A stretch of DNA of 51,464 nt from Pseudomonadota bacterium (GTDB lineage Bacteria; Pseudomonadota; Alphaproteobacteria; Acetobacterales; Acetobacteraceae). Below, in pieces: positions 4,601 through 35,832 of the stretch. The stretch lies in assembly GCA_021805545.1 (NCBI GenBank), contig JAJZFB010000041.1, forward strand, positions 1 to 51,464. Direction: 5' to 3'. Positions within the stretch are counted from its first letter, which is position 1, and each line of letters starts with the position of its first letter. The position numbers were made by a program, and so were the translations under genes. The notes beneath the pieces are model-generated. The model did not search any database. It worked only from the letters and a program-made list of their open reading frames with translations, and was not told where the DNA came from.

Positions 4601-5377
4601 GCGGTGGAATTGCGGCAGGTAATAGGCCAGCAGCTTGGCGCGTTTGGCCGTTCCCGCCGGTACGGGACAAAATTCTTCAAAATGCGGCGCGCGGCGGGTG
4701 GCATGGCGCACCATCGCCGCCACATCGCGCGAGGCATCGGCGCTGGTGGCCAGGCCGGGGTTACGCGCGCGGTTGGCAATGTAATGCAGCAGCGGGTTTT
4801 CATCGCCCAACTGAGCGGCATAGCGCGTCTGGTAGAATTTCAGGTCAAACCCGGGCGCCGGATTGCGCCCTTCCTTCACCCCGAACAGCAGAAAATGCTC
4901 GAACGGGTCGATGCGCGACTGCGCCACATCCGGGTTGCTTTCCAGGTAGAAAGCTGGGTCGAACACCGGCACGGGGCTGACCTCGCCGCTGGCGCGCCGC
5001 TCCAGAAAATGCTTCAGCGCCAGCTCGCCCTGGGGCACATCATAAGTGGCGCGGTACCAAACGGGGTTAAACCAGGGGCACGGCGCACGGCCCTCGGCCT
5101 CGCCAAAGGCAATGTAGTGCAGCAGCGGGTTCACCCCGGCGCTGGCCAGTTCCGGGTTCTGCTTTAAGTACCATCCCGTGTCGAAATACGGGTTGGGCCG
5201 CGCCCCCTCGCGCCAGCCCGTGGCGCAAAAATGTTCCACTCCATCGCCCCCGCGCCCCGCGTGGCCTGGCCGCTGGCCAAAATACCAGGCGGAGAGAAAC
5301 ACCCCGCTCTGGCGGATAACGCGGATTTCGGTCTGTAATTGCTGCGCGTTCACGGGCAAAACCTCCTGCGCCATCAT
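1628..5377 (-). CDS. Multidomain glycosyltransferase (WbsX + GT4 + GT2)
   Basis: This 1249-residue protein is probably a polysaccharide-assembly enzyme with several modules. Residues about 45-200 hold four degenerate repeats of the form FD..WYL..NPD..G.NPL.HY...G..EGR.P. Residues about 245-600 are a WbsX/GH99-like domain (KLLAYYLPQFH, WWGKGFTDWTN, NENWTRRWDG). Residues about 620-945 look like a GT4 (GT-B) transferase, with LGAGFAHIRKGFDLF and PSREDPLPTVVMEALGAG. The last 300 residues are a GT2 (GT-A) transferase, with VAVLNYNYARYLPGRL, LFLDDHSADRS and the acidic CEADDD. No signal peptide or membrane segment is seen. It lies 47 bp upstream of rmlB, suggesting rhamnose-containing polymer synthesis. 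A second ATG at 5374 is an equally good start. Confidence 0.85.
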   Translation of the reverse strand: MMAQEVLPVNAQQLQTEIRVIRQSGVFLSAWYFGQRPGHAGRGGDGVEHFCATGWREGARPNPYFDTGWYLKQNPELASAGVNPLLHYIAFGEAEGRAPCPWFNPVWYRATYDVPQGELALKHFLERRASGEVSPVPVFDPAFYLESNPDVAQSRIDPFEHFLLFGVKEGRNPAPGFDLKFYQTRYAAQLGDENPLLHYIANRARNPGLATSADASRDVAAMVRHATRRAPHFEEFCPVPAGTAKRAKLLAYYLPQFHRVAENDAWWGKGFTDWTNLMRASPRFVGHVQPRVPRDLGFYDLENPDVLRRQVEMAKGAGLEGFVFYTYWFNRHRLLEKPLELFLADKSLDFSFCAMWANENWTRRWDGMEHEVLIAQQYLESDDEALVAHFARMFADARYIRIEGRPLLMLYRPGIIPGTRARIAAWREMFRKHHGENPLITMAQSLGEDYDPRPYGLDGAVEFPPHKISQAAKHIEDTLTPLDPDFAATVHDYAEFSETALNLPAPEFPLIRTIVPSWDNDPRREGKGLVLHGATPALYQGWLEKLVEYAEQNPFFGERVICVNAWNEWAEGAYLEPDLHSGAAYLNATSRAICVQARDDFTGGLLLVGHDAEPHGAQLLLLHIARHLHRQYGMRLQILLLRGGPLLDDYVRVAEVSVMADRKLICHQLERYHTMGIRRAIVNSAASSRLIPWAAERAIAATMLVHELPQLLHEYNLQAHARQGAGAARHVVFSSAYLRDKFTAAVELELPNAEVLAQGNYHQVRFDAAARARLRKELGIGAKEFLVLGAGFAHIRKGFDLFLQLARKLSKRGDVKFLWAGDVEAMVKTYLGPEMAAAAEAGYFIHVPFTSNIADYFSAADVLALPSREDPLPTVVMEALGAGAPCVAFEQSGGIPELLRAHKAGLAVPHADVDAFAAALASLLDHKTLAAARSRLAAMAAEVFDFPAYVQRLLHLVEPELTQVSVAVLNYNYARYLPGRLNGIFAQTHPVAEILFLDDHSADRSVAVAAQLAEDAGREMRIIANAKNAGVFAQWRRAAEEAKGEYIWLCEADDDAAPDLLARLVAACRAAPAPLLAFADSRAVDENGVQVMPDYKSYYFDSGAPGLMQSGLWQERDFATKFLATRNLIPNVSAVLWRRTALLRALNAVPDLATWKLAGDWRLYLALMAGQEGQIAYVAEALNIHRRHGGGVTQRLSPQEHLDEIARMQTLAAEALKLGKQARAAQAADFARVAAQLTPAKTVARRRKV

Positions 5378-23113: not shown

Positions 23114-23977
23114 TTAATGCGAAGCCGCTCCGAGAATCTGGATGTTGCGGTTCACACGCTGCTTATATTCGCGTGGCGTTTCGCCCGTGGCGCGGCGGAA
23201 CGCCACGGTAAAGTTGGAAGAGGCGGTGAAATTCATGGCGCCAGCCACCGATTTTATACTCATGCCCGCCTCGATCAATTTTTTTGCCTGGGTCATGCGG
23301 TGCTCCAGCACATAATGGCCGATTGAACGGCCGCGGCTGATGCGAAAGGCGCGTGTAAGGTGGCGCACTGAAATATTGCACAAGGCCGCCAACTCCGCCA
23401 CATTTGGCGGGTTTAGGCCGTTCGCCAGCCGCTCATCGATGAGACGCAGGCGCCAAGGGGCTAGCCCGCCAAGGGCTTTTTCTTCGTCAAGCCCCTGAAT
23501 ATAGCGCGCCAGTTCAATAACAACCTGTGCTGCCATCAACTCGATCATGTTGTGGCTCGCCAGCCCGGGCGCGCGCGCTTCCTCGCCAATGCGAAAGAGT
23601 AAATGGCGTATGTCGTGGCTGGTAATATCAAGGCACCCTTGCAGGCGCCGGCTTGTCCAGTCCAGGTGGCAATCAAAATACCGCTGTAATATACTCGGCG
23701 CAAAATCGAGCACGATGGAATTTTGATGCTGACAGCCGCTTTGCGCGTGCATGAATTCCCCGCCGGGGATAAGAAATAATTCGCCGATTGGCTCAAACCG
23801 GTGCGGCCCCCAATGCGCGGGGTAGCTGCCCCGGGCGAGTTCCGAGCGCGGCAAGAGCGAGAGTTCCAGATGGTGGTGCGGCTGAGCGCCGCTGCTATCG
23901 ATGCGAGCAGCCCAGCTTTTGCGAATGATACGGATGCTGCCGAACGAGATCGGCAGCTCGGCATCTATGGCTTCCAT
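23114..23977 (-). CDS. AraC-family transcriptional regulator
   Basis: This 287-residue protein has an N-terminal cupin-like sensing half (EPIGELFLIPGGEFMHAQSG) and a C-terminal AraC DNA-binding domain of two helix-turn-helix motifs: NVAELAALCNISVRHLTRAF and MSIKSVAGAMNFTASSNFTV followed by FRRATGETPREYK. GGAGG precedes the ATG. It lies 107 bp downstream of the F420-type oxidoreductase on the same strand, so it is a candidate second regulator of the catabolic/F420 block besides the GntR protein. The effector is unknown. Confidence 0.88.
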   Translation of the reverse strand: MEAIDAELPISFGSIRIIRKSWAARIDSSGAQPHHHLELSLLPRSELARGSYPAHWGPHRFEPIGELFLIPGGEFMHAQSGCQHQNSIVLDFAPSILQRYFDCHLDWTSRRLQGCLDITSHDIRHLLFRIGEEARAPGLASHNMIELMAAQVVIELARYIQGLDEEKALGGLAPWRLRLIDERLANGLNPPNVAELAALCNISVRHLTRAFRISRGRSIGHYVLEHRMTQAKKLIEAGMSIKSVAGAMNFTASSNFTVAFRRATGETPREYKQRVNRNIQILGAASH

Positions 23978-24084
23978 ATTTCCTCCATTGGCGGGGTGCG
24001 CCGCAAACAGGGTTGTAACGGAAGGGCGGTGGCGGCGTAAATTATCTAAACCGGCCTAATCGGCCATAATAATGCAATAAGGAC

Positions 24085-24951
24085 TCATCCAGCGTCGATG
24101 ACCCGCTTGGTCTGGGCCAAAAAGTCAATATGCGCATCCATATCGCGCGGCAGCCCCTTGTTCATGGAATGCACCGTGCCATGCGTGCCGCCCGCATCGC
24201 GGAAGGTTTTGATGGCATCCGCCGCTTCTTGCTGGTTGCGGGCAAAAATTGTCAGTAATTCGCGGCCAAATGCGTTCTCATCCCGGCCCAAGGCGGCCAG
24301 ATGATGTTTCACCCGCCCCCAGGCCTCTACCGCGCCTGGGCCGTCCGCGGCGAAGATGAAGCCATCGCCCAGCCTGGCCCCACGCTCATAGGCTGGCTCG
24401 CTATGCCCGCCAAGCCAGAGAGGGATTTGCCGCCGTGGCCTGGGGTTAATGCCGGCGCGGTCGATGTGGTCGAACCGCCCCTGGAAGTTTACAACCGGGG
24501 TGGTCCAGAGTTCGCGCAAAAGGCCGGTTTGTTCCTCCAGCCGCTTATTCCGGCTCTTAAAATCCTGGCCCAGCGCGTCATATTCCACGTAGTTCCAGCC
24601 AATGCCCACACCCAGGCGCAGGCGTTCGCGGCTCAGCAAATCCACATCGGCCGCCTGTTGGGCGACGAGTGCCGTCTGCCGCTGCGGCAGCACCAGCACG
24701 CCGGTTACAAATTCCAGCTTTGTGCAAAGTGCGGCGGCAAATCCAAACAGCACGAATGGATCGTGAAAGGAGTCTTTTTCAGTATAAGGCCCGGTCAATT
24801 TCGGCTCGCGTCCCTCGTGCGGGGCTTTTACCACATGGTCGTAAGCCATCATGTGTGAGAACCCGAGTTCCTCCGCCGCGTGCACGAATTTGCGTATATC
24901 GTCAGGGTTACCGGCCAGTTCGGTGACGGGGTAGGATACGCCGATTTTCAT
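24085..24951 (-). CDS. LLM-class F420-dependent oxidoreductase
   Basis: This is a luciferase-like TIM-barrel flavin/deazaflavin enzyme of 288 residues (TIGR03619-like subgroup, which uses F420). The start at 24951 gives the family opening MKIGVSYPVTELAGNPDDI; an upstream extension has no homologous content. Core motifs: AAEELGFSHMMAYDHV, VLVLPQRQTALVAQQAADVD, RLRLGVGIGWNYVEYDALG and PLWLGGHSEPAYERGARLGD. Such enzymes move hydride between F420 and a substrate or C=C/C=N bond. The nearby complete F420 biosynthesis operon strongly supports F420 as cofactor. It is read with the GntR and AraC genes, divergent from the Rieske gene. Confidence 0.88.
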   Translation of the reverse strand: MKIGVSYPVTELAGNPDDIRKFVHAAEELGFSHMMAYDHVVKAPHEGREPKLTGPYTEKDSFHDPFVLFGFAAALCTKLEFVTGVLVLPQRQTALVAQQAADVDLLSRERLRLGVGIGWNYVEYDALGQDFKSRNKRLEEQTGLLRELWTTPVVNFQGRFDHIDRAGINPRPRRQIPLWLGGHSEPAYERGARLGDGFIFAADGPGAVEAWGRVKHHLAALGRDENAFGRELLTIFARNQQEAADAIKTFRDAGGTHGTVHSMNKGLPRDMDAHIDFLAQTKRVIDAG

Positions 24952-25098
24952 TCCGTTCCTCATGCTGCATTTTTGGCTTGCGTACCGTGTCTTATCCACG
25001 CCGCCATATTGGGGCAAGTGCATGCGCTTGAATGACCATACAAGTTTGGCGTGCGGACGGTTTTGTGCTGGTTTTCCGATAAAAATTGTCCGGTTGCA

Positions 25099-25911
25099 TC
25101 AGGTTTTCACGCGCCGCATGGTCATGGAGAGACGGAAGCGCGAGGTGGGGTGCACATTAAATGTTACCTGTACTATCTTTCCGTCCGCCGCCTTGTACAT
25201 TCGCCTTACTTCCAGCGCTGGCGTGCCCTCGCTTACATGGTAGCGCGCGGCCTGCTCGCGCGAGATCAGCACGGCTGTCACCTCCTGCTGCACTTCGGCG
25301 ATGCTGAGGGCAAACAAATCCTCGATGAGCGGGAAGATTGGCCCGTTATGGCGCGGCAGCAACCGCCCCACGGCGGCATAATCGCGGTTGATATAGTACT
25401 CGGTCCAGCAAACTGGCGCCTCTTGCCCCTCTGCCTGGCGAAAGCCGCAAATGGTCAGCCATTCCTCACCGCTGGGCACACCAATGCGCGCCGCGAGCGG
25501 CTCGTCCACAACAAGCAGCTTCATCTGCTCAATTTCAAAATGCGTGCCTGCTGTAAAGGTCAGCAGATCGTTGATTGACATGGCATGAAGCACATACATG
25601 CCCGGCGCCGCGACGGGCACGACAACGGTGCCAGCCCCTTGGCGGGACATAATCAGCCCGTCATCGCGCAGTTGCCGCAGCGCTTCGCGCACGGTAAAGC
25701 GGCTTACGGCAAATCTCGTGCATAAATCATGCTCAGTTGGTAATTGCGCGCCTACCGGGTGAATCCCGCTCAAAATTTCATCCTTCAGCGTGGCGGCCAC
25801 TTGTAAATAAAGTGGTTGCGTGCATCTGGCGGGTGTGGGTGGCTGACGGTCTTTTCCTTCGCCGCGCCGGTTTGCCGGTTCAATTTTATTGTCCATTGCC
25901 TTTGCGATCAT
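25099..25911 (-). CDS. GntR-family regulator with UTRA domain
   Basis: This is a HutC-subfamily regulator of 270 residues. The N-terminal winged helix (residues about 35-100) shows QVAATLKDEILSGIHPVGAQ, LCTRFAVSRFTVREALRQL and DDGLIMSRQGAGTVV; the rest is a UTRA ligand-binding domain (TICGFRQAEGQ, PVCWTEYYINRDYAAVG, ARYHVSEGTPALEVRRMYKA). Members repress a neighbouring catabolic operon until a small effector binds. It faces the Rieske oxygenase across a 607-bp intergenic region, the likely site of its operators. An alternative ATG lies at 25896. Confidence 0.9.
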   Translation of the reverse strand: MIAKAMDNKIEPANRRGEGKDRQPPTPARCTQPLYLQVAATLKDEILSGIHPVGAQLPTEHDLCTRFAVSRFTVREALRQLRDDGLIMSRQGAGTVVVPVAAPGMYVLHAMSINDLLTFTAGTHFEIEQMKLLVVDEPLAARIGVPSGEEWLTICGFRQAEGQEAPVCWTEYYINRDYAAVGRLLPRHNGPIFPLIEDLFALSIAEVQQEVTAVLISREQAARYHVSEGTPALEVRRMYKAADGKIVQVTFNVHPTSRFRLSMTMRRVKT

Positions 25912-26518
25912 CTCTCATTGTGCCGCCGGTCCCCCCGCCGATCGGGACTGGTATGATTTAAACTAACTTATTTCTGGCAAAGATGCTCCAGCTAAACCGG
26001 TTTGCCCAGATATGTTTGGGATTTTACCTATCTGGCGCTAGCGGCGTTCCGTGGCCGGTTGGTTTTTTGTATTTGTCCGTACATATTATGCGCAACCTTA
26101 AAAAACACATGTAAACGCCATATTTTTGAGGGTTGACCTGAAGCTGATTTGTGGTATCTGTCTGGACATGTTGCCGTCCAAAAGATTACAACAGCTTGGC
26201 AGGGCAAAACCTGCTGGCGCAATACTTAGCACTGATTTTGCTCCGCGTTTTTGGGGGCGGGCGGTTATATGGTATTGTGAGGATAATATATCCGTACAAA
26301 TCGGGCACCATAATCGCTGTGGTGCCGGGTGGAAGGGGTGGTGCCGTGCTGCCACTCATGCCGGTACGGATATTGACGCAACACGGGCCGCGGTGTTCGG
26401 TGGGATCCCAAGGGGCAATACGTGTCTGGCTGGCTGGCTTGCCGCGTTTGTCCGTAATTTTCGTCAGTATCCGGGGTCGTCAATGCCCCGTCTGGCGTTG
26501 CCATAACAGGAGGGAAAC
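25912..26518. promoter_or_regulatory. Divergent regulatory region gntR / Rieske oxygenase
   Basis: There is no convincing gene in these 607 bases, which are more AT-rich than their surroundings. They hold the palindrome AAACCGGTTT (25994-26003), TCCGTACA at 26076-26083 and 26291-26298, TATCCGTAC at 26289-26297 and again inverted at 26364-26372, and a TGGAC/GTCCA inverted repeat near 26161-26180. These are candidate operators for the GntR or AraC protein. A strong AGGAGGG ribosome site for the Rieske gene ends the region. Confidence 0.5.
26133..26160 (+). promoter_or_regulatory. Candidate promoter of the Rieske operon
   Basis: TTGACC (26133-26138), 16 bp, then TATCTG (26155-26160). It would leave a leader of about 350 nt. 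The match is moderate and other starts are possible. Confidence 0.3.
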
Positions 26519-27880
26519 ATGGATCAATCTGTCGATTTGTCGACGGAAACCGTGCCGCAACCGGTTATCATTCCGGTCGAGGCTTATATTTCTGAGGAAT
26601 ACGCCAAGCAGGAGCGTACCAAGCTCTGGCAGAAAACCTGGCTGATGGCCGGACGTCTGGAGGATATGCCCAATCCAGGCGATTACCTCACCTTCGAGAT
26701 CATGGACGACTCAATCCTGGTCACGCGGGACGATGAGAATAATATTCGTGCCTTTCATAATGTATGTATGCATCGCGGGCGCCGCCTGGTGGATAAAGCC
26801 TGCGGTGCCAAACAAGGCTGCGGCAATGCCAAGCAGTTCCGTTGCGGCTTTCATGGCTGGCGCTGGAACAACAAGGGCGAAAACGTATTCGTGCAGGAAA
26901 AGGCGGACTGGCAAGGCAAGCTCACGCCAGAAAATCTCGCGCTCACCAGCGTGAAATGCGACACATGGGGCGGCTGGGTGTGGATTAACATGGACCCCGG
27001 CGCGGAACCCTTGCGCGCTTATCTGGAGCCGGCGGCGAGCATGCTGGACCCGTTCCAGCTTGAGAATATGCGCTACCGCTGGCGCCGCTGGCTGATTGCC
27101 GATTGCAACTGGAAGGTTGCGATGGAGGCTTTTTGCGAGACCTACCATGTGCCGGGCACGCATCCTGAATTCATGGCTTTTGGCACGTATAGCGGCTGGT
27201 CCAGAGCGCAGGGCAAGCATAGCAATATCGGCTATAACGCGCCCAAGGGGCAGGATGAGAACAAGGCCAAACTGCGCCTTGGCACGGGCGCGGACCCGCG
27301 CAAGGCCACGGCGGAAATGCAGCTTTACACCTGGGAACATGCCAACACCAACACCACGGAAACGCTGGTGAAGGCCGCGGTGCGCCTGGTGGATGAACTG
27401 CCCGAGGGCACGCCCGCGGGCGAGGTGCTGCAGCATTGGCTGACCTCTGCCCGGCGCGACGATGAGGCGCGCGGTGTATTCTGGCCGGTGGTCGATCCCG
27501 AGCATGTCGGCAAGAGCGGCACGTCCTGGCAGATTTTCCCGAACTTCCAGATCGGCCATGCCGTGAACAACATGCTTTGCTATAATGCGCGCCCTTACGG
27601 CAACGACCCCAACAAGTGCATCTTCGAAGCGGCTATCTACGAGTTGTTCCCGCCTGGGCAGGAGCCGAAGACGGAATGGATATTCACCCCGCCCGACGAC
27701 CCGGCTTGGCGTTCGGTTCTGCCGCAGGATTTCGCCAATATGGCGATGGTGCAGCAGGGCATGAAGTCCGCTGGTTTTCCTGGCACCAGGCCAAACCCGC
27801 TTCAAGAAGTTGCGGTAAGCAACCTGCACAAGAATCTTTCCAAATATATGGGGGCGGGTGCGCCCAAGCCGCTTGAGTAA
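26519..27880 (+). CDS. Rieske non-heme iron oxygenase, catalytic subunit
   Basis: This 453-residue oxygenase component should use O2 and two electrons to hydroxylate or demethylate an organic substrate. The Rieske 2Fe-2S site is C83-x-H85 ... C109-x-x-H112 (NVCMHRGRRL and CGFHGWRW). The loop between the pairs is 23 residues, about six longer than usual, with two extra cysteines (C95, C101). The mononuclear iron site is ETYHVPGTHPEF: H210 and H215 with a Glu at 207 where most ring hydroxylases have the bridging Asp. No ferredoxin or reductase gene is next to it, so electrons must come from elsewhere. It leads the Rieske, CoA-transferase and acyl-CoA dehydrogenase series. Confidence 0.9.
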   Translation: MDQSVDLSTETVPQPVIIPVEAYISEEYAKQERTKLWQKTWLMAGRLEDMPNPGDYLTFEIMDDSILVTRDDENNIRAFHNVCMHRGRRLVDKACGAKQGCGNAKQFRCGFHGWRWNNKGENVFVQEKADWQGKLTPENLALTSVKCDTWGGWVWINMDPGAEPLRAYLEPAASMLDPFQLENMRYRWRRWLIADCNWKVAMEAFCETYHVPGTHPEFMAFGTYSGWSRAQGKHSNIGYNAPKGQDENKAKLRLGTGADPRKATAEMQLYTWEHANTNTTETLVKAAVRLVDELPEGTPAGEVLQHWLTSARRDDEARGVFWPVVDPEHVGKSGTSWQIFPNFQIGHAVNNMLCYNARPYGNDPNKCIFEAAIYELFPPGQEPKTEWIFTPPDDPAWRSVLPQDFANMAMVQQGMKSAGFPGTRPNPLQEVAVSNLHKNLSKYMGAGAPKPLE

Positions 27881-27903
27881 CGCTGCCTCGCGGTGGCTAC
27901 GGT

Positions 27904-27924
27904 GCGCCCGGCTGGCCCGGGCGC
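27904..27924 (+). terminator. Intercistronic hairpin
   Basis: GCGCCCGG, 5-nt loop, CCGGGCGC, followed by CGCCCTTTAT, in the 102-bp gap after the Rieske gene. There is no real T-run; it may lower expression of the downstream genes or stabilise the Rieske mRNA. Confidence 0.4.
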
Positions 27925-27982
27925 GCCCTTTATCAACACTACGCCGGCAAGCGGGGCGTTCAGGGGGTATTAAGTCGTTAAA

Positions 27983-29164
27983 ATGTCAAAAAATGGACCA
28001 CTTGCCGGTCTGCGGGTCATAGATCTAACCGCCATGGTGATGGGGCCTTATTGCACCCAGATCATGGCGGATATGGGCGCCGACGTTATCAAGGTCGAAC
28101 CGCCAGCCGGCGACAATACACGCTTCATTTCCGTTGCGCCCGAGGCAGGGCTTGCAGGCGTGTTTGTCAACGTCAATCGCGGCAAGCGCAGCATTGTGCT
28201 CGATCTTCGCGAAGAGGCGGATAAGGAGGTGCTGCGCAAGCTCATCGCCACGGCCGACATCTTCATCCACTCGCAGCGCGCCAAGGCCATAGGCAAGCTC
28301 GGTTTTTCCTACGCCGAGGTCTCGGCCATAAACCCCACGATTATCTATACTAATTGCTACGGCTATAGCCGGCGCGGGCCGGATAAGAATCTCACCGCCT
28401 ATGACGATGTAATCCAGGCCGAGTGCGGGCTACCTGCTGTGCAGCAGATGCTTACCGGTGAACCCAACTATGTTGGTACCATTGTGGCCGATAAGGTGGC
28501 CGGCCTCACCGCGCTTTATGCCACGACCATGGCCTTGTTTCACCGCGCGCGCACAGGTGAAGGCCAGGAGGTGGAAATTGGTATGTTTGAGACCATGGCC
28601 AGCTTCATGCTGGTGGAGCACGCCAACGGCGCCATGTTCACCCCCAAGCTCGGCCCGGCCTTTTACCCCCGCGCCGTGGCGCCTAACCGGCGGCCATACC
28701 CCACGAAGGACGGCTATATCGCCGTGCTTGTGTATAACGACAAGCAATGGAACGCCTTTATCAACGCCGTGCAGCCCGTCTGGAATGGCCCGGAATTCGC
28801 AACCCTTGCCCAGCGCGCCAAGCAGATTGACCGGGTGTATAACCTCGTCGGCCAGACATTGAAGGAGCGCACCACGGGAGAGTGGCTGGAGCTGTTCCGT
28901 GGCCTTGATATTCCCTCCGCGCCGCTACGCACGCCGGATGAATTGTTCGAAAACGAACATCTCAACGCCATCGGCTTTTTTGAAACTGTGGACACGGAAT
29001 ACGGCCCGGTGCGTTTCCCCGGCGTGCCAACCTTGTTCTCTGCAACACCAGGCCGTGTTGCCGGCTTTGCGCCCAAGCTCGGCCAGCACACGGACGAGCT
29101 GCTTGCGGAGTTAGGCTTGCCCTCGCGTAACGGCACAGTGCGTTCCACGGAAAACATCATCTGA
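27983..29164 (+). CDS. CaiB/BaiF class III CoA-transferase
   Basis: This enzyme moves CoA between organic acids and activates a carboxylate for further breakdown. It has 393 residues. The N-terminal GLRVIDLTAMVMGPYCTQIMAD, NRGKRSIVLDLR and ADIFIHSQRAKAI are typical; the likely catalytic Asp is D170 (NYVGTIVADKVAGLTAL), matching Asp169 of formyl-CoA transferase. GEGQEVEIGMFETMASFM and the C-terminal PGVPTLFSATPG complete the family pattern. It sits between the Rieske oxygenase and an acyl-CoA dehydrogenase, suggesting an acid formed after oxygenation, or the starting acid itself, is made into a CoA ester. The substrate is unknown. Confidence 0.9.
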   Translation: MSKNGPLAGLRVIDLTAMVMGPYCTQIMADMGADVIKVEPPAGDNTRFISVAPEAGLAGVFVNVNRGKRSIVLDLREEADKEVLRKLIATADIFIHSQRAKAIGKLGFSYAEVSAINPTIIYTNCYGYSRRGPDKNLTAYDDVIQAECGLPAVQQMLTGEPNYVGTIVADKVAGLTALYATTMALFHRARTGEGQEVEIGMFETMASFMLVEHANGAMFTPKLGPAFYPRAVAPNRRPYPTKDGYIAVLVYNDKQWNAFINAVQPVWNGPEFATLAQRAKQIDRVYNLVGQTLKERTTGEWLELFRGLDIPSAPLRTPDELFENEHLNAIGFFETVDTEYGPVRFPGVPTLFSATPGRVAGFAPKLGQHTDELLAELGLPSRNGTVRSTENII

Positions 29165-29179
29165 CCAGGGTTTAGTAAA

Positions 29180-30346
29180 GTGGATTTTTCTCTTAGCGAA
29201 GAGCAGCAGACAATCCGCGACGCGGTGCTGAAGCATTGCGCGCAATTCTCGCCGGAATATTGGTTGCAACACGACCATGACGCCACGTTTCCGCATGATT
29301 TCTACAAATCTCTGGTCGATGCCGGGTGGCTTGGCATTGCCATGCCCGCGGAATTTGGCGGTTCGGGCCTTGGGATTACCGAAGCCTCTCTGATGATGCA
29401 GGCTATTGCGGAATCGGGTGCCGGTATGTCTGGCGCCTCCGCCGTGCATATGCCTGTATTCTCGCTCCAGCCCATCGCCCTGTTTGGCACGGAAGAGCAG
29501 AAGCAGCGTATGTTGCCACCCGTGGTGGCGGGGCAGGACCGTGTCTGCTTTGCCGTCACGGAACCCAATGCTGGCCTTAACACCACCGAGCTGAAAACCC
29601 GCGCCGAGAAGGTGGAGGGCGGCTATATGGTCAATGGCGAAAAAATCTGGATTTCCACCGCGCAGGTGGCCAATAAGATGCTTTTGCTGGCCCGCACCAC
29701 CCCGCTGGACCAGGTGAAGCGAAAGACCGAAGGCCTCTCGCTCTTCTACACCGATCTCGACCGCAGCAAGATCGAGGTCCGCCTGATCCACAAGATGGGC
29801 CGGCATGCTGTGGACTCCAACATGCTCTTCATCTCAGACCTCTTCGTGCCCGAGGAGGACCGCATTGGCGCCGAAGGGCAGGGGTTCAAGATTATTCTGC
29901 ACGGCATGAACCCTGAGCGCATACTCATTGGCGCGGAATCGGTCGGAATCGGCCGTGCCGCCATCGCGCGCGCCGCGCGCTATGCCAGGGAGCGCATCGT
30001 ATTCAACCGCCCCATCGGCATGAATCAGGGGATTCAGCACCCCCTTGCCAAATGCTGGGCGCAGTTGGAGGCGGCCAATCTTATGGTGTTCAAGGCTGCT
30101 GCTCTGTTCGACCAAGGCAAGGAGTGCGGCGTGGAAGCCAATGCGGGCAAATACCTGGCGGCGGAAGCGGCTTTCGAGGCCTGCCACACCGCCATGCTAA
30201 CACTTGGCGGCATGGGCTACGCGCAGGAATATCACATTGAGCGGCTCATGCGTGAAGTGTTTATCCCCCGTACCGCGCCGATCAGCCCGCACATGATCCT
30301 CAACTTCCTGGCCGAAAAAGTATTGGACCTGCCAAAATCATATTAA
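29180..30346 (+). CDS. Acyl-CoA dehydrogenase family protein
   Basis: This FAD enzyme should oxidise an acyl-CoA to the 2-enoyl-CoA. It has 388 residues and starts with GTG (MDFSLSEEQQTIRDAVLKH), 15 bp after the CoA-transferase. AVTEPNAGLNTTELKTRAEK and GYMVNGEKIWISTAQVANK are the flavin- and substrate-binding strands; GAEGQGFKIILHGMNPERIL and GGMGYAQEYHIERLMREV are also standard. At the usual place of the catalytic Glu (IYEGT in short-chain enzymes) it reads FIPRTAPIS, with no Glu, so the base must lie elsewhere, as in isovaleryl-CoA and long-chain types, or the reaction differs. It ends 162 bp before the F420 genes. Confidence 0.88.
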   Translation: MDFSLSEEQQTIRDAVLKHCAQFSPEYWLQHDHDATFPHDFYKSLVDAGWLGIAMPAEFGGSGLGITEASLMMQAIAESGAGMSGASAVHMPVFSLQPIALFGTEEQKQRMLPPVVAGQDRVCFAVTEPNAGLNTTELKTRAEKVEGGYMVNGEKIWISTAQVANKMLLLARTTPLDQVKRKTEGLSLFYTDLDRSKIEVRLIHKMGRHAVDSNMLFISDLFVPEEDRIGAEGQGFKIILHGMNPERILIGAESVGIGRAAIARAARYARERIVFNRPIGMNQGIQHPLAKCWAQLEAANLMVFKAAALFDQGKECGVEANAGKYLAAEAAFEACHTAMLTLGGMGYAQEYHIERLMREVFIPRTAPISPHMILNFLAEKVLDLPKSY

Positions 30347-30508: not shown

Positions 30509-31933
30509 ATGACGATTCTAGCCGTGCTGGGTGGTACGGGTGCCTTGGGTGGGGCCATGGCCAAGCGCTGGGCGCAGGCGGGCCATGAAATATGGATTGG
30601 CTCGCGCGACGCCGTGAAGGCGCAGGCCGCCGCCGCGGCGCTGAAGGCGGAGCTGCCGGATGCGAACATCCATGGCGCCGCCCTGGGCGATGCCGCGCAA
30701 AATGCCGGGATTGTTGTGCTTGCCGTGCCCTATGCTTCTCAGCTTGCCACCATCGAAGCCATAAAAGGCCGGGTTGCGGGCAAGATTGTTATCGACACCA
30801 CAGCGCCGCTTAAGCCCCCCAAGGTGGGCACCGTGCAACTCCCCGCCATGGGCAGCGCGGCTGTTGAAGTGCAGGCCTTGCTGGGCGAGGAGGCGCAGGT
30901 TGCCTCCGCCATGCAGACCATCAGCGCGGAAAAACTCGCGCATGACGAACCCATCGAGGCCGATGTATTGGTTGCCGCCGATAAGAAGGACGTGGCGGAG
31001 ATCGTCATCGGGCTGATCGGCGATCTCGGCCTGCGCGGCTTTCACGCCGGCCCGCTTGCGAATTCCGCGGCCTCGGAAGCGCTTACGTCAATCCTCATTC
31101 AGCTTAACCGCCGGTATTTTTCGCATGCCGGCATCCGTATCACGGGCGACCCTAAAGGCGGCACCGCGGCCACGAAGCCAGTGCAGATCATCCCCGTCTC
31201 AGGCCTGCCTCTGTTCACGCAAGGCGATGATCTTGCCGCGGCCATTGCTTCCGCGCTGCGTGCCCAGGGCGAGGCGCTGCATGGCGGAGATGTGCTGGTT
31301 GTGGCGCAGAAAATTGTCTCCAAGGCCGAGGGGCGAAGCATCCGCCTGGCTGACGTCAAACCGTCGGATGAGGCGCGAAACCTTGCGGCGGAAACCGGCA
31401 AGGAGCCTGCCGTGGCGGAGTTGATGCTGCGTGAATCCAGCGCCATCATGCGCGCCAAGCCGGGTGTTGTTATTGCCCGCCACAAAACCGGCCATGTTGC
31501 CGCCAATGCGGGGATCGATGCCTCGAATGTCGGCGAAGGTGATGGCGCCGTGCTGCTTTGGCCGGAAAACCCGGATGCCAGTGCCGCCGCCCTGCGCGCC
31601 GCGCTGGGGCATCAATTCAACGCGGACATCGCCGTCATCATTAGCGACTCCCTTGGCCGGGCATGGCGCCTGGGTACGGCGGGCTCAGCCATGGGTTCAG
31701 CCGGAATCGCGCCCGTAACCGACCGCCGGGGCGAAGCTGATTTGTTCGGCCGCACCTTGCAGGCAACAATCGTTGCCCGGGCCGATGAGCTGGCCGCCGC
31801 CGCTTCGCTGGTTATTGGCGAGGCTGCGGAAGCGATTCCCGCCGCCATCATTCGCAACGCGCCCTATGTCCACAGCGCCACGGACGGAATAGGCTCCATC
31901 CTGCGCCCGGCGGAGGAGGATTTATTCCCGTGA
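30509..31933 (+). CDS. Fusion of F420:NADPH oxidoreductase (Fno) and F420-0 gamma-glutamyl ligase (CofE)
   Basis: Two F420 enzymes are joined in one 474-residue chain. Residues 1 to about 215 are Fno/NpdG, which transfers hydride between NADPH and F420: AVLGGTGALGGAMAKRWAQA, the NADP phosphate site GSRDAVKAQ, VLAVPY and VIDTTAPL. Residues about 222-474 are CofE, which adds gamma-linked glutamates to F420-0: IIPVSGLPLFTQGDDLAAAI, VLVVAQKIVSKAEGRSI, NAGIDASNVGEGDGAVLLWP, SDSLGRAWRLGTAGSAMGSA and DRRGEADLFGR. There is no C-terminal nitroreductase-like domain as in mycobacterial FbiB. A good GGAGGG site precedes the ATG. It opens the F420 operon, 22 bp before fbiC. Confidence 0.93.
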   Translation: MTILAVLGGTGALGGAMAKRWAQAGHEIWIGSRDAVKAQAAAAALKAELPDANIHGAALGDAAQNAGIVVLAVPYASQLATIEAIKGRVAGKIVIDTTAPLKPPKVGTVQLPAMGSAAVEVQALLGEEAQVASAMQTISAEKLAHDEPIEADVLVAADKKDVAEIVIGLIGDLGLRGFHAGPLANSAASEALTSILIQLNRRYFSHAGIRITGDPKGGTAATKPVQIIPVSGLPLFTQGDDLAAAIASALRAQGEALHGGDVLVVAQKIVSKAEGRSIRLADVKPSDEARNLAAETGKEPAVAELMLRESSAIMRAKPGVVIARHKTGHVAANAGIDASNVGEGDGAVLLWPENPDASAAALRAALGHQFNADIAVIISDSLGRAWRLGTAGSAMGSAGIAPVTDRRGEADLFGRTLQATIVARADELAAAASLVIGEAAEAIPAAIIRNAPYVHSATDGIGSILRPAEEDLFP

Positions 31934-31955
31934 ACCGGGCTGGAGTGCAGATGCC

Positions 31956-34328
31956 ATGACCGCGCCAAGCCTGACGGACGCCGGATTGCTCACCATCCCT
32001 CTGCCAGCCCTTATGGCGCAGGCGGCGGCGCTGCGTGATGTACATTACGGCAATATCCAGACCTATTCACGAAAAGTCTTTATCCCGCTTACTCATCTGT
32101 GCCGCGACGTGTGCGCCTATTGCACCTTCGCCAAGCCGCCCAAGGCGGGCGGGGCGGTCTTTCTCTCGCGGGAAGAGGTGCTTGCCATTGCCCGGGCCGG
32201 AGCCGCCGCCGGCTGCACCGAAGCGCTGTTTACCTTGGGCGAAAAACCCGAGCTGCGCTACAATGCCGCGCGCGAGGCGCTGGACGCGCTAGGGCATCAT
32301 TCCACCATCTCCTACCTCGCGGAAATGTGCCGCGCGGTGCTGGAGGAAACAGGCCTGCTGCCCCACGCCAATCCCGGCACGCTGGATGATTCAGGGCTGG
32401 AGCAGCTTCGCGAAGTTTCCGTCAGCCAGGGCATGATGCTGGAGAGCATTTCCGGACGCCTGTGCCAGCCAGGCGGCCCGCATTACGGCTCGCCAGATAA
32501 ACATCCGGCGCCACGGCTGGAAACCCTGGAAAGGGCAGGGGCACGGAAAATCCCCTTCACCACAGGCATTCTCATTGGCATTGGCGAGACGCGGCAAGAG
32601 CGGCTGGATGCCCTGCGCGCCATTGCGGCATCGCACCAGCGCCATGGGCATATCCAGGAAGTCATCATCCAGAATTTCCGCGCCAAGGCTGATACGCGCA
32701 TGAAGGCCGCGCCGGAGCCGGATTTCGAGGAACTGCTCTGGACCGTTGCCGCGGCACGCCTCATCTGCGCGCCTGAGATCAGTATTCAGGCCCCGCCCAA
32801 TCTGTCTGACAAAATCTATCCGCGCCTCATCGAGGCCGGAATTAACGATTGGGGCGGTATTTCTCCGGTTACCATCGACCATGTAAACCCCGAATCGCCC
32901 TGGCCGCATTTGCAAACGCTGGCGGAGCAGACCGCCGCGCAAGGCAAGCTGCTGGTTCAGCGCCTGCCGCTTTACCCGCAATATATAGATGCCCGCGCGC
33001 AATGGCTTAGCCCCGCGCTCATCGCCCCCGTGCTGCGTGCCGCGGACAGCGATTATTTCGCCCGCGCCGAGGATTGGTGCCCCGGCAGCCAGTCGCCGCC
33101 GCCGCCGCCCGCCTATATTCCACGGCTGGCGCCCGGGTCCCGTCTCATCGCCGCGCTTAGTGCCGCCAGGCAAGGCGATACATTGCGCGAAGATGACATT
33201 ACCCGCCTTTTCGCCGCGCGCGGGGCGGATTTTGAGCTGGTCTGCGAAGCCGCAGATGCGCTGCGCCGCAGGATGAATGGCGATACTGTGAGCTATGTCG
33301 TCAACCGCAACATCAACTACACCAATATTTGCGGTTACCATTGCCGTTTCTGTGCCTTTTCCAAAGGCAAGACGCATGAGGATTTGCGTGGCCCCGCCTA
33401 TGACCTAGATTTGGAGGAGGTTGCACGCCGTACCGTGGAAGGCTGGGCGCGCGGCGCCACGGAAGTGTGCATGCAAGGCGGCATCCACCCCGATTACACG
33501 GGCGAAACATATCTGGCCTTGTGCCGCGCGGTGAAGGATGCCGTGCCGCAAATGCATATCCATGCCTTCTCGCCGCTGGAGGTGCGCCACGGGGCCGTAA
33601 CGCTCGGGCTTTCTCTTACGGCGTACCTTGAAAGACTCCGCGATGCCGGTCTTGCCAGCCTGCCCGGCACGGCGGCGGAAATTCTCGACGATGAAGTGCG
33701 TGCCGAATTATGCCCGGATAAGTTGAACACGGCCGAATGGTTCGAGGTGATGGAAGCCGCCCATGCGGTGGGGCTGCGCACCACCTCCACCATCATGTTC
33801 GGCCATATCGAGCATCCGCGCCATTGGGCCAGGCACTTGCTGCGCCTGCGCGCGTTGCAAATCCGCACGGGCGGCTTTACGGAGTTTGTGCCCTTGCCGT
33901 TCGTGCACATGGAAGCCCCGCTCTACCGCAAGGGCGGGGCGCGCCAAGGCCCCACATACCGCGAGGCCGTGCTGATGCACGCTGTCTCCCGTCTGGTGCT
34001 GCATCCTGTTATTCCCAATATCCAGGTTTCCTGGGTGAAGCTGGGTGAGCAGGGTGCGCTGCGGGCGCTGGCCAGCGGTGGGAATGACTTTGGCGGCACA
34101 TTGATGAATGAGAGCATCTCCCGCGCCGCCGGTGCCGCTCATGGGCAGGAACTGGAGCCTGAACGCATGGAAGCTCTTATTCGCGCCGCGGGCCGCGTAC
34201 CGCGCATGCGCACCACCTTGTATGCCGATGCCCCTGCCAGCCAGCGCATGCGCGCTTTTGGGGCCGCTGGACTAGCCCCGATCATCCTCACCAAGCCGCG
34301 CGTCCGCGCCAGGGCGGCGGTGCAATGA
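31956..34328 (+). CDS. fbiC: FO synthase FbiC (CofG-CofH fusion)
   Basis: FbiC joins a ribityl-aminopyrimidine from riboflavin synthesis and tyrosine to make FO, the deazaflavin core of F420. It has 790 residues and two radical-SAM barrels, each with its own 4Fe-4S triad: CofG half, C49-x3-C53-x2-C56 (CRDVCAYC), and CofH half, C459-x3-C463-x2-C466 (CGYHCRFC). GCTEALFTLGEKPE, HANPGTLDDSGLEQLREVS and ISPVTIDHVNPE are CofG landmarks; VCMQGGIHPDYTG, HAFSPLEVRHGAVTLGLSL, LPGTAAEILDDEVRAELCPD and GGNDFGGTLMNESISRAAGA are CofH ones. The length is close to actinobacterial FbiC. Its stop overlaps the cofD ATG (ATGA). Confidence 0.97.
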   Translation: MTAPSLTDAGLLTIPLPALMAQAAALRDVHYGNIQTYSRKVFIPLTHLCRDVCAYCTFAKPPKAGGAVFLSREEVLAIARAGAAAGCTEALFTLGEKPELRYNAAREALDALGHHSTISYLAEMCRAVLEETGLLPHANPGTLDDSGLEQLREVSVSQGMMLESISGRLCQPGGPHYGSPDKHPAPRLETLERAGARKIPFTTGILIGIGETRQERLDALRAIAASHQRHGHIQEVIIQNFRAKADTRMKAAPEPDFEELLWTVAAARLICAPEISIQAPPNLSDKIYPRLIEAGINDWGGISPVTIDHVNPESPWPHLQTLAEQTAAQGKLLVQRLPLYPQYIDARAQWLSPALIAPVLRAADSDYFARAEDWCPGSQSPPPPPAYIPRLAPGSRLIAALSAARQGDTLREDDITRLFAARGADFELVCEAADALRRRMNGDTVSYVVNRNINYTNICGYHCRFCAFSKGKTHEDLRGPAYDLDLEEVARRTVEGWARGATEVCMQGGIHPDYTGETYLALCRAVKDAVPQMHIHAFSPLEVRHGAVTLGLSLTAYLERLRDAGLASLPGTAAEILDDEVRAELCPDKLNTAEWFEVMEAAHAVGLRTTSTIMFGHIEHPRHWARHLLRLRALQIRTGGFTEFVPLPFVHMEAPLYRKGGARQGPTYREAVLMHAVSRLVLHPVIPNIQVSWVKLGEQGALRALASGGNDFGGTLMNESISRAAGAAHGQELEPERMEALIRAAGRVPRMRTTLYADAPASQRMRAFGAAGLAPIILTKPRVRARAAVQ

Positions 34329-35251
34329 TTATCGCTCTTGCGGGCGGGGTGGGCGGTGCGCGCATGGCGCATGGGCTGGCGCGCATATTGCCGCCCGGTC
34401 AACTCTCGGTTGTGGTGAACACGGCCGATGATTTTACCCATCTCGGCCTGCATATCTGCCCGGACCCGGATACGGTGATGTACACGCTGGCCGGCTTGGC
34501 CGACCCTGAGCGCGGCTGGGGTTTGGAGGGTGAGACCTTTAACGCCATGGAGGCTCTGGGCAAGCTCGGCGGTGAAAACTGGTTTTCCCTCGGCGACCGC
34601 GACCTTGCGACGCACATGGAGCGTACACGCCGCCTTACCCTTGGCGAGCCCTTATCCGCCATCATGGCGGATTTCTGCGCGCGCCTCGGCGTTCAGCACG
34701 CCGTCATTCCCATGTCGGATGGCGCCATCCGCACCCTTGTTCATACGGAGGAGGGGGATCTGCCCTTCCAGGACTATTTCGTCCGCCACCGCTGTAGGCC
34801 AGCCGTCACGGGCATCAGCTTCGAGGGCGCCGGGCAAGCCGCGCCAAGCCCGGCCATGCAGGACCTCATGCAGAGTGGCAAGGTTCGCGGTGTGGTCATA
34901 TGTCCCTCCAACCCGTTTCTTTCCATCGCCCCCATTCTCGCCGTGCCGGGCGTGCGCTCCTGGCTTCAAGGGCGCCAATTTCCCTGCATTGCCATTTCTC
35001 CGCTCATTGGCGGCAAGGCCGTGAAAGGGCCGGCAGCCAAGATCATGGCGGAGATGCAGATCGATGCCACACCGCGCGGAATCGCCTTACATTACCAGGG
35101 GCTGATAGACGGGCTGGTGATCGACCACGAAGATTCGGCGGATGCGTCTGGCCAATGCCTCGTCACCGGCACACTCATGCGCAGCGTGGCAGACCGCGAA
35201 CGCCTGGCGCGTGAGGCGTTATCTTATCTTGAGTCATTGCGCACTGTATGA
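34325..35251 (+). CDS. cofD: 2-phospho-L-lactate transferase type enzyme CofD/FbiA
   Basis: CofD transfers a phospholactyl-type group from its nucleotide-activated form (made by CofC) to FO, giving F420-0 or dehydro-F420-0. It has 308 residues and the full family pattern: IALAGGVGGARMAHGLARIL at the start, VNTADDFTHLGLHICPDPDT, LGDRDLATHMERTRRL, PMSDGAIRTLVHTEEGDLPF, VICPSNPFLSIAPILAVPGV and SPLIGGKAVKGPAAKIMAEM. It overlaps fbiC and cofC by four bases each, so the three are translationally coupled. Which three-carbon acid it carries cannot be told from this gene. Confidence 0.96.
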   Translation: MIIALAGGVGGARMAHGLARILPPGQLSVVVNTADDFTHLGLHICPDPDTVMYTLAGLADPERGWGLEGETFNAMEALGKLGGENWFSLGDRDLATHMERTRRLTLGEPLSAIMADFCARLGVQHAVIPMSDGAIRTLVHTEEGDLPFQDYFVRHRCRPAVTGISFEGAGQAAPSPAMQDLMQSGKVRGVVICPSNPFLSIAPILAVPGVRSWLQGRQFPCIAISPLIGGKAVKGPAAKIMAEMQIDATPRGIALHYQGLIDGLVIDHEDSADASGQCLVTGTLMRSVADRERLAREALSYLESLRTV

Positions 35252-35832
35252 ATGTCTGGGCCGTGCTTCCGGTAAAGCCCGCCGCGGAAGGCAAATCCCG
35301 TTTGGCTGGTACTTTGCCGCTACCGCAGCGGGTCCGGCTTAACCGCAAGCTGTTTCGTCACACATTAGCAACCGTTTGCAGTGTATTTGCGCCGGAGCAT
35401 GTCATCATTGTCAGCCGCGACCCAGCGTTATTAGGCATTGCCGCCGCGGCGGGCACTCATGCGCTTACCGAGCACGGCTACGAGCTGAACGAGGCACTCA
35501 CCCAGGCGCTGCGGTTCGCTTCGCCACAAGACGGCCTGCTTGCCATAAGCACCGATCTTCCCACCCTGGGGGAGGAAGATTTACGCGCCATGCTGGCGGC
35601 ACCCGGCCAGGCTGTTCTGGCGCCAGACAGGGCAGGGCGGGGCACAAACGCGCTACTCATGCGCCCCGCGGGCTGCATCCCGTTTAGCTTTGGGGAAGAT
35701 AGCTTGACCAGGCACCGCCAAGCCGCCGAGGCGCGGGGCCTTGAAATTGGCATCATATCCCGGCCTGGCCTGGCTTTCGATCTTGACTTGCCGGAAGACC
35801 TTAAACGCTGTCCGCCCGGCTTGCTGGGGTAA
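35248..35832 (+). CDS. cofC: Phospholactate/phosphoenolpyruvate guanylyltransferase type enzyme CofC/FbiD
   Basis: CofC activates a phosphorylated three-carbon acid with GTP for CofD. It has 194 residues: VLPVKPAAEGKSRLAGTLP (nucleotide-binding start), VIIVSRDPALLGIAAAAGTH, GLLAISTDLPTLGEEDL with the metal-binding Asp, and APDRAGRGTNALLMRPAGCI. The family takes 2-phospholactate in archaea, phosphoenolpyruvate in mycobacteria and 3-phosphoglycerate in Paraburkholderia rhizoxinica; this protein's choice is not clear by eye. It is the last gene of the operon, 28 bp before repeat copy B. Confidence 0.93.
   Translation: MNVWAVLPVKPAAEGKSRLAGTLPLPQRVRLNRKLFRHTLATVCSVFAPEHVIIVSRDPALLGIAAAAGTHALTEHGYELNEALTQALRFASPQDGLLAISTDLPTLGEEDLRAMLAAPGQAVLAPDRAGRGTNALLMRPAGCIPFSFGEDSLTRHRQAAEARGLEIGIISRPGLAFDLDLPEDLKRCPPGLLG

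What the first reader, a model, noticed from the sequence alone, without database searches (positions are those of the whole stretch)
30509..35832. Compact, coupled F420 biosynthesis operon with an Fno-CofE fusion
Four genes carry FO synthesis (CofG-CofH fusion), CofC, CofD and CofE, plus F420:NADPH oxidoreductase. fbiC-cofD-cofC overlap by ATGA. The N-terminal Fno joined to C-terminal CofE places the enzyme that recharges F420 with NADPH in the same chain as the enzyme that lengthens its glutamate tail. This differs from mycobacteria, where CofE is joined to a nitroreductase-like domain. F420 is best known from archaea and actinobacteria; it has been reported in some proteobacteria, so the presence here is notable though not unique.
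Basis: partly seen in the sequence, partly recalled or inferred. Interest (0 to 1): 0.75.

Follow-up and report, generated by a model that had tools for sequence, protein, structure and literature searches.

The report
F420 operon with fused Fno-CofE enzyme
This bacterium has a compact set of genes for making the electron carrier F420, in which the enzyme that charges the carrier and the enzyme that adds its glutamate tail have become one protein; the pathway is known, and the joined protein is a rare variant that seems to have arisen more than once.

Summary
Window 30509-35832 holds four co-directional genes: fno-cofE (one 474-codon ORF), cofGH, cofD and cofC, the last three overlapping by ATGA. 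All parts pass curated models; both halves of the fusion match solved Fno and CofE. It is no assembly error: four other genomes of the genus carry it (two complete, two cut by contig ends), it is one clade on the operon tree, and both halves are under purifying selection. It is unusual: in 78 of 115 CofE places examined fno and cofE are neighbouring separate genes, 6 are fused. A second fusion, apparently independent, is in another family. In this genus, genomes with the operon carry more luciferase-like hits (median 10 v 1) and PF04075 proteins (10 of 12 v 0 of 26), so the cofactor is probably used. Most likely the protein is a bifunctional NADPH:F420 reductase and F420 glutamate ligase; hand-over between halves is unproven. 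No clear dehydro-F420 reductase (FbiE) is recognisable here or in 72 of 74 same-class genomes searched, so the side-chain route stays open. New variant of a known kind; moderate interest.

The parts
30509..31933 (+). fused fno-cofE gene: Fno residues 1-213, linker about 214-223, CofE about 224-474
   Evidence: unbroken frame in relatives; fold matches
30509..31147 (+). Fno half (NADPH:F420 oxidoreductase, TIGR01915)
   Evidence: 166.8 bits over cut-off 149.8; phmmer to 5n2i 2.4e-36 and 1jax 1.4e-27; Foldseek TMt 0.90 to 5n2i_D
31148..31177 (+). linker of about ten residues, low-confidence in both models
31178..31933 (+). CofE half (F420-0:gamma-glutamyl ligase, TIGR01916)
   Evidence: 267.8 bits over cut-off 180.65; phmmer to 7uld/2phn/2g9i about 1e-47; Foldseek TMt 0.91 to 2phn_B
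31956..34328 (+). cofGH / fbiC, FO synthase with two radical-SAM CxxxCxxC motifs (residues 49-56 and 459-466)
34325..35251 (+). cofD / fbiA transferase; ATGA overlap with cofGH
35248..35832 (+). cofC / fbiD guanylyltransferase with glycine at the position that is serine in 3-PG-type CofC; ATGA overlap with cofD
   Evidence: position explained in PMC8764529 (passages)
24085..25023 (-). luciferase-like (LLM) oxidoreductase, TIGR03619 (a family named F420-dependent), divergent from the operon side; conserved near the operon in G013
   Evidence: 234.9 bits over cut-off 166.9
26519..30346 (+). Rieske oxygenase, CoA-transferase III and acyl-CoA dehydrogenase genes upstream on the same strand, in the same order in G013 and G033; a functional link to F420 is not shown

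Best explanation
This is a complete F420-making operon of an alphaproteobacterium, probably Acetobacteraceae (inferred). CofGH makes the deazaflavin FO; CofC and CofD attach a three-carbon phospho-acid with the help of GTP; the CofE half of the fusion adds the gamma-glutamate tail; the Fno half reduces finished F420 with NADPH. The fusion joins, by a short linker, two genes that are neighbours in most related operons. Shown here: genes, families, intact frames, predicted folds, purifying selection on both halves, lineage distribution. Inferred: both activities, the direction NADPH to F420, and use of F420H2 by luciferase-like and Ddn-like proteins of the genome. Not shown: any hand-over of F420 between the halves, or any gain from the fusion.
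For: Curated-model scores for all five functions. Matches to solved Fno and CofE over nearly the full length of each half and fold matches of both halves. Of the positions conserved in separate Fno and CofE proteins most are kept in the fused ones; kept ones include Gly-Ser-Arg 31-33 of Fno and Asp261, Lys268, Ser271, Lys272, Asp337, Ser339, Asn340, Asp380, Arg384 and Arg387 of CofE (exceptions under evidence against). Nei-Gojobori dN v dS: Fno half 0.126 v 1.493, CofE half 0.182 v 1.135 for window-G013, similar for G015, and 0.048 v 0.695 and 0.073 v 0.72 for G019. The five fused operons form one clade, support 100/99, in a tree of 23 chosen rows. Operon and likely user enzymes co-occur in the genus: PF00296 hits median 10 in 12 operon-bearing genomes, 1 in 26 without, Mann-Whitney p 6.6e-6; PF04075 in 10 of 12 v 0 of 26, Fisher p 1.4e-7. 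These p values treat related genomes as independent.
Against: No F420 and no activity was measured. At positions conserved in separate Fno (over 85% of 82 rows) the fused proteins of this genus differ: Asn59 to Leu (also in the G252 fusion and in the separate Fno of G275 and G179), Ala121 to Val, Val132 to Ala, Phe135 to Met, Asn137 to Thr, Ala162 to Val or other; and their Fno half sits on a long branch (0.64), so a shift in kinetics or substrate is possible. Thr at 137 is also what solved archaeal Fno shows. In the CofE half Asp299, Leu351 and Gly450 are changed in the window. If PEP is the side-chain donor, the dehydro-F420 reductase has no recognisable gene in this genome, which is 97.75% complete. 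One operon-bearing genome, G016, has a single PF00296 hit, and G004 and G019 have no PF04075 hit.
Confidence: 0.85

Rival explanations
1. The fusion is a neutral accident: a stop codon between two co-transcribed same-frame genes was lost and nothing was gained; each half acts as it would alone. (This is about the benefit of the fusion and is compatible with the best explanation.)
For: In 40 of the 59 loci with both genes co-directional and separate they lie in the same reading frame (a share inflated because tblastn ranks same-frame pairs higher; one of the 59, L072, has the genes 1.2 kb apart), so a lost stop would fuse them. The linker is short and varies. In 78 of 115 CofE places the two genes are neighbours but separate.
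Against: Kept in five genomes of the genus at 79-89% identity to the window with strong purifying selection. The operon tree and the rpoB tree disagree on these genomes, so the fused form may have been passed on as a unit or lost often. A second fusion exists. None of this excludes neutrality.
Confidence: 0.5
2. The Fno half, or the fused pair, also reduces dehydro-F420-0, filling the gap left by the missing FbiE, as the nitroreductase half of FbiB does in mycobacteria.
For: CofC is of the 2-PL/PEP type. No FbiE/FbiB C-terminal homologue reaches the cut-off in any of 80 genomes; of the 74 of the window's class only G294 and G370 exceed 100 bits. The window genome's best hit is BluB. CofE is fused to a reductase both in FbiB and here.
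Against: Where clear FbiE-like proteins exist, right after cofE in G294, G370 and four Chloroflexi operons, a separate Fno is still next to cofE, so Fno normally does another job. The fold is that of ordinary Fno. Weaker nitroreductase matches (43-75 bits) exist in other class genomes, two of them, G220 and G310, 4.4 kb from fno-cofE, so a distant FbiE is not excluded there. 2-phospho-L-lactate could be used instead: in vitro it was the best substrate of the CofC proteins tested from Paracoccus and Oligotropha (PMC8764529, passages).
Confidence: 0.05
3. The fused gene also yields free CofE from an internal start, so the cell holds both forms.
For: An in-frame GTG at codon 225 (31181-31183) begins the CofE half; it is GTG also in G015, G033 and G019.
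Against: The codon is GTC in G013 and no ATG lies in the window's linker. No ribosome-site test was run.
Confidence: 0.12
4. Assembly or frameshift artefact.
For: The window comes from a draft genome of 96 contigs.
Against: Unbroken frame in four other genomes of the genus and dN far below dS.
Confidence: 0.01

Closest known systems
FbiB of mycobacteria (CofE N-terminal, FMN nitroreductase FbiE C-terminal)
   Same: CofE covalently joined to a reductase of the F420 pathway (passages of PMC8498797)
   Different: Another reductase family (Fno, NADPH-binding Rossmann fold) at the other end of CofE; no nitroreductase domain here
Separate neighbouring fno and cofE genes of Proteobacteria, Chloroflexi and Acidobacteriota operons
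   Same: Same two families, mostly same order, same operon partners
   Different: Separate genes with a stop between them
Second Fno-CofE fusion in G252 and G414 (family f87, same class)
   Same: Same domain order, frame open through the junction; G414 is cut by its contig end
   Different: About 49% identical to the window, longer linker, placed apart on both trees; family mates G147 and G809 have separate genes
FbiC (CofGH) FO synthase
   Same: Equivalog-level match
   Different: Nothing notable
3-PG-type CofC of Mycetohabitans
   Same: Same family; closest solved structure by E-value (7p97)
   Different: Glycine instead of the diagnostic serine

Membership tests
CofE, F420-0:gamma-glutamyl ligase (TIGR01916) | score over the curated cut-off | tested here: met
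   267.8 bits v 180.65; it does not reach the stricter archaeal-type model PRK13293 (249.1 v 274)
CofE, F420-0:gamma-glutamyl ligase (TIGR01916) | fold of solved CofE | tested here: met
   Foldseek 2phn_B TMt 0.91 over 249 columns
CofE, F420-0:gamma-glutamyl ligase (TIGR01916) | GTP-dependent glutamylation of F420-0 | not testable with these tools
   needs purified enzyme
Fno / NpdG (TIGR01915) | score over the curated cut-off | tested here: met
   166.8 bits v 149.8
Fno / NpdG (TIGR01915) | Gly-Ser-Arg after the second strand (NADP-phosphate binding; role recalled, from no call) | tested here: met
   residues 31-33, as in 80-81 of 82 separate Fno rows
Fno / NpdG (TIGR01915) | hydride transfer between NADPH and F420 | not testable with these tools
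   needs purified enzyme
FbiB (CofE + nitroreductase) | C-terminal FMN nitroreductase domain (TIGR03553) | tested here: not met
   no such domain in the fusion; no homologue over cut-off in the genome
FbiC / CofGH (NF006687, PRK09234) | score over cut-off and two CxxxCxxC radical-SAM motifs | tested here: met
   1124.7 v 1018; motifs at 49 and 459
CofD (TIGR01819) and CofC (TIGR03552) | score over cut-off | tested here: met
   288.5 v 257.45; 152.5 v 105
3-PG-activating CofC | Ser or Thr at the Mrhiz-CofC S162 position | tested here: not met
   Gly in FGEDS, aligned with the Gly of Mtb FbiD

The most novel reading that the evidence does not exclude
In Alphaproteobacteria without FbiE, the Fno-CofE unit is the missing dehydro-F420 reductase as well as the NADPH:F420 reductase: the fused Fno half reduces the enolpyruvyl side chain while CofE extends the tail, a second solution to the problem that FbiB solves with a nitroreductase.
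Probability: 0.05. Interest if true: 0.75.

Novelty: new variant of a known kind. Interest (0 to 1): 0.42.

Why it matters
It adds a second fusion partner for CofE, and a repeated fusion together with the frequent adjacency of fno and cofE ties F420 reduction to tail synthesis in bacteria outside Actinobacteria. A single-chain NADPH:F420 reductase and ligase would be a handy part for making and recharging F420 in laboratory hosts. The survey also suggests that most CofE-bearing genomes of this class lack a recognisable FbiE, which makes the unsolved side-chain step testable in this group.

Tried and rejected
Artefact: rejected by four further genomes.

Stop-codon readthrough as a regulated fusion in relatives: one search showed 40 of 59 co-directional separate pairs in one frame, which looked striking, but the loci had been ranked by a single tblastn alignment, which favours same-frame pairs; not pursued.

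FbiE elsewhere in the genome: the best hit is BluB; a second, 12.7-bit stretch (L083) was not looked at.

Faulty steps: one search used wrong columns of the BLAST table and was redone. The rpoB tree took wrong reading frames for several rows and was redone. Alignment A1 misplaced the Fno-only rows and was replaced by A2 and A3. The group labels 'apart' and 'adjacent' in the trees rest on distances between frame starts and mislabel L018, which is adjacent.

Naming the organism: no 16S rRNA found. Alphaproteobacteria and Acetobacteraceae are inferred from where CofE of other f1 genomes falls among named loci.

Published mention of the fusion: none seen. Searches aimed at it; others on F420 (13, 18, 56) showed none either. 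The library holds open-licence papers only. PMC8498797, PMC8764529 and PMC6450877 were seen as passages, not whole; the other papers listed, among them ten of the 13, only as search listings. The 2017 ISME paper on F420 in soil bacteria is not held.
Full report
What is there. The window holds four genes on the + strand: fno-cofE 30509-31933, cofGH 31956-34328, cofD 34325-35251, cofC 35248-35832. cofGH-cofD and cofD-cofC overlap by ATGA, and 22 bases separate the fused gene from cofGH. Every part passes an NCBIfam cut-off, Pfam agrees, and both radical-SAM motifs of CofGH are intact. The window's own genome gives one match to the fusion.

The fused protein. Residues 4 to 212 match Thermobifida Fno almost to its C-terminal end and residues 224 to 472 match Archaeoglobus CofE over nearly its whole length, leaving a linker of about ten residues. 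Two AlphaFold models were made, one with CofE relatives (mean pLDDT 83.1, pTM 0.57) and one with Fno relatives (74.4, pTM 0.56); in each the half without relatives is the less certain one. The first finds solved CofE (2phn_B, TMt 0.91), the second solved Fno (5n2i_D, TMt 0.90). How the halves sit towards each other is not resolved.

How common is it. One of the 80, L002, has both domains in one frame; it is the same contig as G033, a genome of the window's genus. Of the other 79, 40 have both genes co-directional, separate and in one frame, 19 in another frame (in one, L072, 1.2 kb apart), 2 divergent, and 18 show CofE alone in the fetched stretch (its printed counter also holds the window's own L001 as fused and nine own-genome loci, L082-L090, under 'no both'). 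Over a wider set of 115 CofE places (duplicates dropped there and) 78 have Fno adjacent, 6 are fused, 1 is apart in the same locus, and 30 show no Fno in the fetched stretch; two of those 30, L124 and L151, are contig-cut parts of fusions, so G033 is counted twice. These sets were chosen by likeness to the fusion and give no unbiased frequency. Among 38 genomes of the genus 12 have CofE matches: five are fused (G000, G013, G015 complete; G019 and G033 cut by contig ends), five have adjacent separate genes (G004, G009, G016, G032, G035) and two, G028 and G020, have cofE-cofGH-cofD-cofC with Fno on another contig. In a class sample 58 of 386 genomes match at 1e-40; in three an alignment runs from Fno into CofE without a stop: own, G252 and, cut by its contig, G414. 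Of five genomes in the family of G252 four match: G252 and G414 are fused, G147 and G809 have separate genes. In a phylum sample of 397 only the own genome matches at 1e-70, a limit that a complete fusion should pass but most separate genes would not. In plasmids 75 records match; of the 30 listed none carries a feature name that shows a fusion, and many carry separate npdG and cofE.

History. On a concatenated tree of CofE, CofG, CofH, CofD and CofC with 23 chosen rows the five fused operons form one clade (100/99), sister to G028 and G020. The quick CofE tree alone does not resolve this. On the Fno tree the five are one clade on a long branch. The G252 fusion is placed apart on both trees; starred branches force two origins of the label on the CofE tree but do not exclude one on the Fno tree, so independence is likely, not proven. 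On rpoB the fused genomes do not form one clade (G015 rests on 245 residues; no rpoB was found for G033, G016 and G020), so transfer within the genus or repeated loss is likely. Whether the fused lineage lost a stop between neighbours or gained fno beside cofE is not settled, because its sister lineage lacks the adjacent fno; for G252 the family mates with separate neighbours make stop loss the simpler reading. The cof genes are slightly richer in G+C (62.5-65.2%) than three neighbours (58.8-60.3%).

Are both halves working. Most conserved columns are kept in the fused proteins; the exceptions are listed under evidence against. dN is roughly a twelfth to a sixth of dS for G013 and G015 against the window (dS near saturation) and about a fourteenth to a tenth for G019.

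Is F420 used. PF00296 has 7 hits in the own genome; across the genus the median is 10 in 12 operon-bearing genomes and 1 in 26 others (G016, with the operon, has 1). Of the own seven three pass TIGR03619, a family named F420-dependent (window 24085-25023, L085, L088), one (L090) passes MsnO8, which is not named so, and three pass no model looked at (one search was given matched stretches, not whole genes). PF04075 is found in 10 of 12 v 0 of 26 (G004 and G019 lack it). None of the seven passes the F420-dependent glucose-6-phosphate dehydrogenase model, so the Fno half is the only F420-reducing enzyme I recognised; other kinds were not searched for.

The open step. CofC has glycine where serine marks 3-PG use, so the side chain should come from 2-phospho-L-lactate or PEP. 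PEP would need an FbiE-type reductase. TIGR03553 was sought in 80 genomes: 74 of the window's class with CofE matches (G304 and G410 of the class sample and G066 were left out, and not every pathway gene was checked in each) and six Chloroflexi. None passes the cut-off; 29 of 80 have a weaker match at 1e-10. Above 100 bits are G294 and G370 of the class and three of the six Chloroflexi (G803, G805, G808); G806 has 86 bits; the rest of the listed matches have 43-75 bits, in the range of generic nitroreductases, though those of G220 and G310 lie 4.4 kb from fno-cofE. The three high ones tested (L174, L176, L177) match FbiB C-terminal models best. They lie right after cofE: 57-60 bases after it in G294 and G370, between cofE and cofD in L009, L014 and L051, and after cofE in L018. 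Fno is next to cofE in all six. So fno-cofE-fbiE looks like a common neighbourhood in which Actinobacteria joined CofE to FbiE and these lineages joined Fno to CofE (inference). It also argues against Fno being the side-chain reductase. No F420-positive actinobacterium was among the controls, so the sensitivity of this search rests on the hits just named.

Literature. The passages seen of the 2021 review (not every place where it says fusion was shown) name the CofG-CofH and CofE-FbiE fusions and list Fno in Alphaproteobacteria with a question mark; they do not mention Fno-CofE. The searches named under Tried and rejected showed no other mention. Annotation databases may well hold the fused sequences under one of the two names.

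Verdict. Observation confirmed, interpretation supported. A rare, real domain fusion, seen in two lineages, in an otherwise well-known pathway: new variant of a known kind.

Noticed in passing
L015:10336-13479, L016:10315-13359, L031:3717-6797: CofC and CofGH lie in one open frame without a stop, a possible CofC-CofG-CofH triple fusion in other Proteobacteria.
   Followed up: no
L018:6636-8681: The Fno frame of a Chloroflexi genome is open for about 455 codons upstream of Fno; another fusion or chance.
   Followed up: no
L174, L176, L177, L178 and their surroundings: FbiE-like nitroreductases sit right after cofE beside fno in Chloroflexi and in two genomes of the window's class, G294 and G370.
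   Followed up: partly
window 23114-30346: AraC, LLM and GntR genes divergent from a Rieske oxygenase, CoA-transferase and acyl-CoA dehydrogenase row keep their place upstream of the fused gene in G013; the Rieske, CoA-transferase and dehydrogenase part also in G033. Possibly a catabolic unit that uses F420H2.
   Followed up: partly
L128:2301-3086: The Fno gene of G020, on another contig than its cof operon, has an in-frame stop; broken gene or assembly error. Described only.
   Followed up: no
Fno residue 59 of the window: Leu instead of the usual Asn in both fusions and in the separate Fno of G275 and G179, their near kin on the Fno tree; meaning unknown.
   Followed up: no
window 1628-5377 (-): A 1249-aa protein combines WbsX-like, group 1 and family 2 glycosyltransferase domains.
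   Followed up: no
genus g1: F420 operons are patchy in the genus (12 of 38 genomes) and of at least two unlike lineages.
   Followed up: partly
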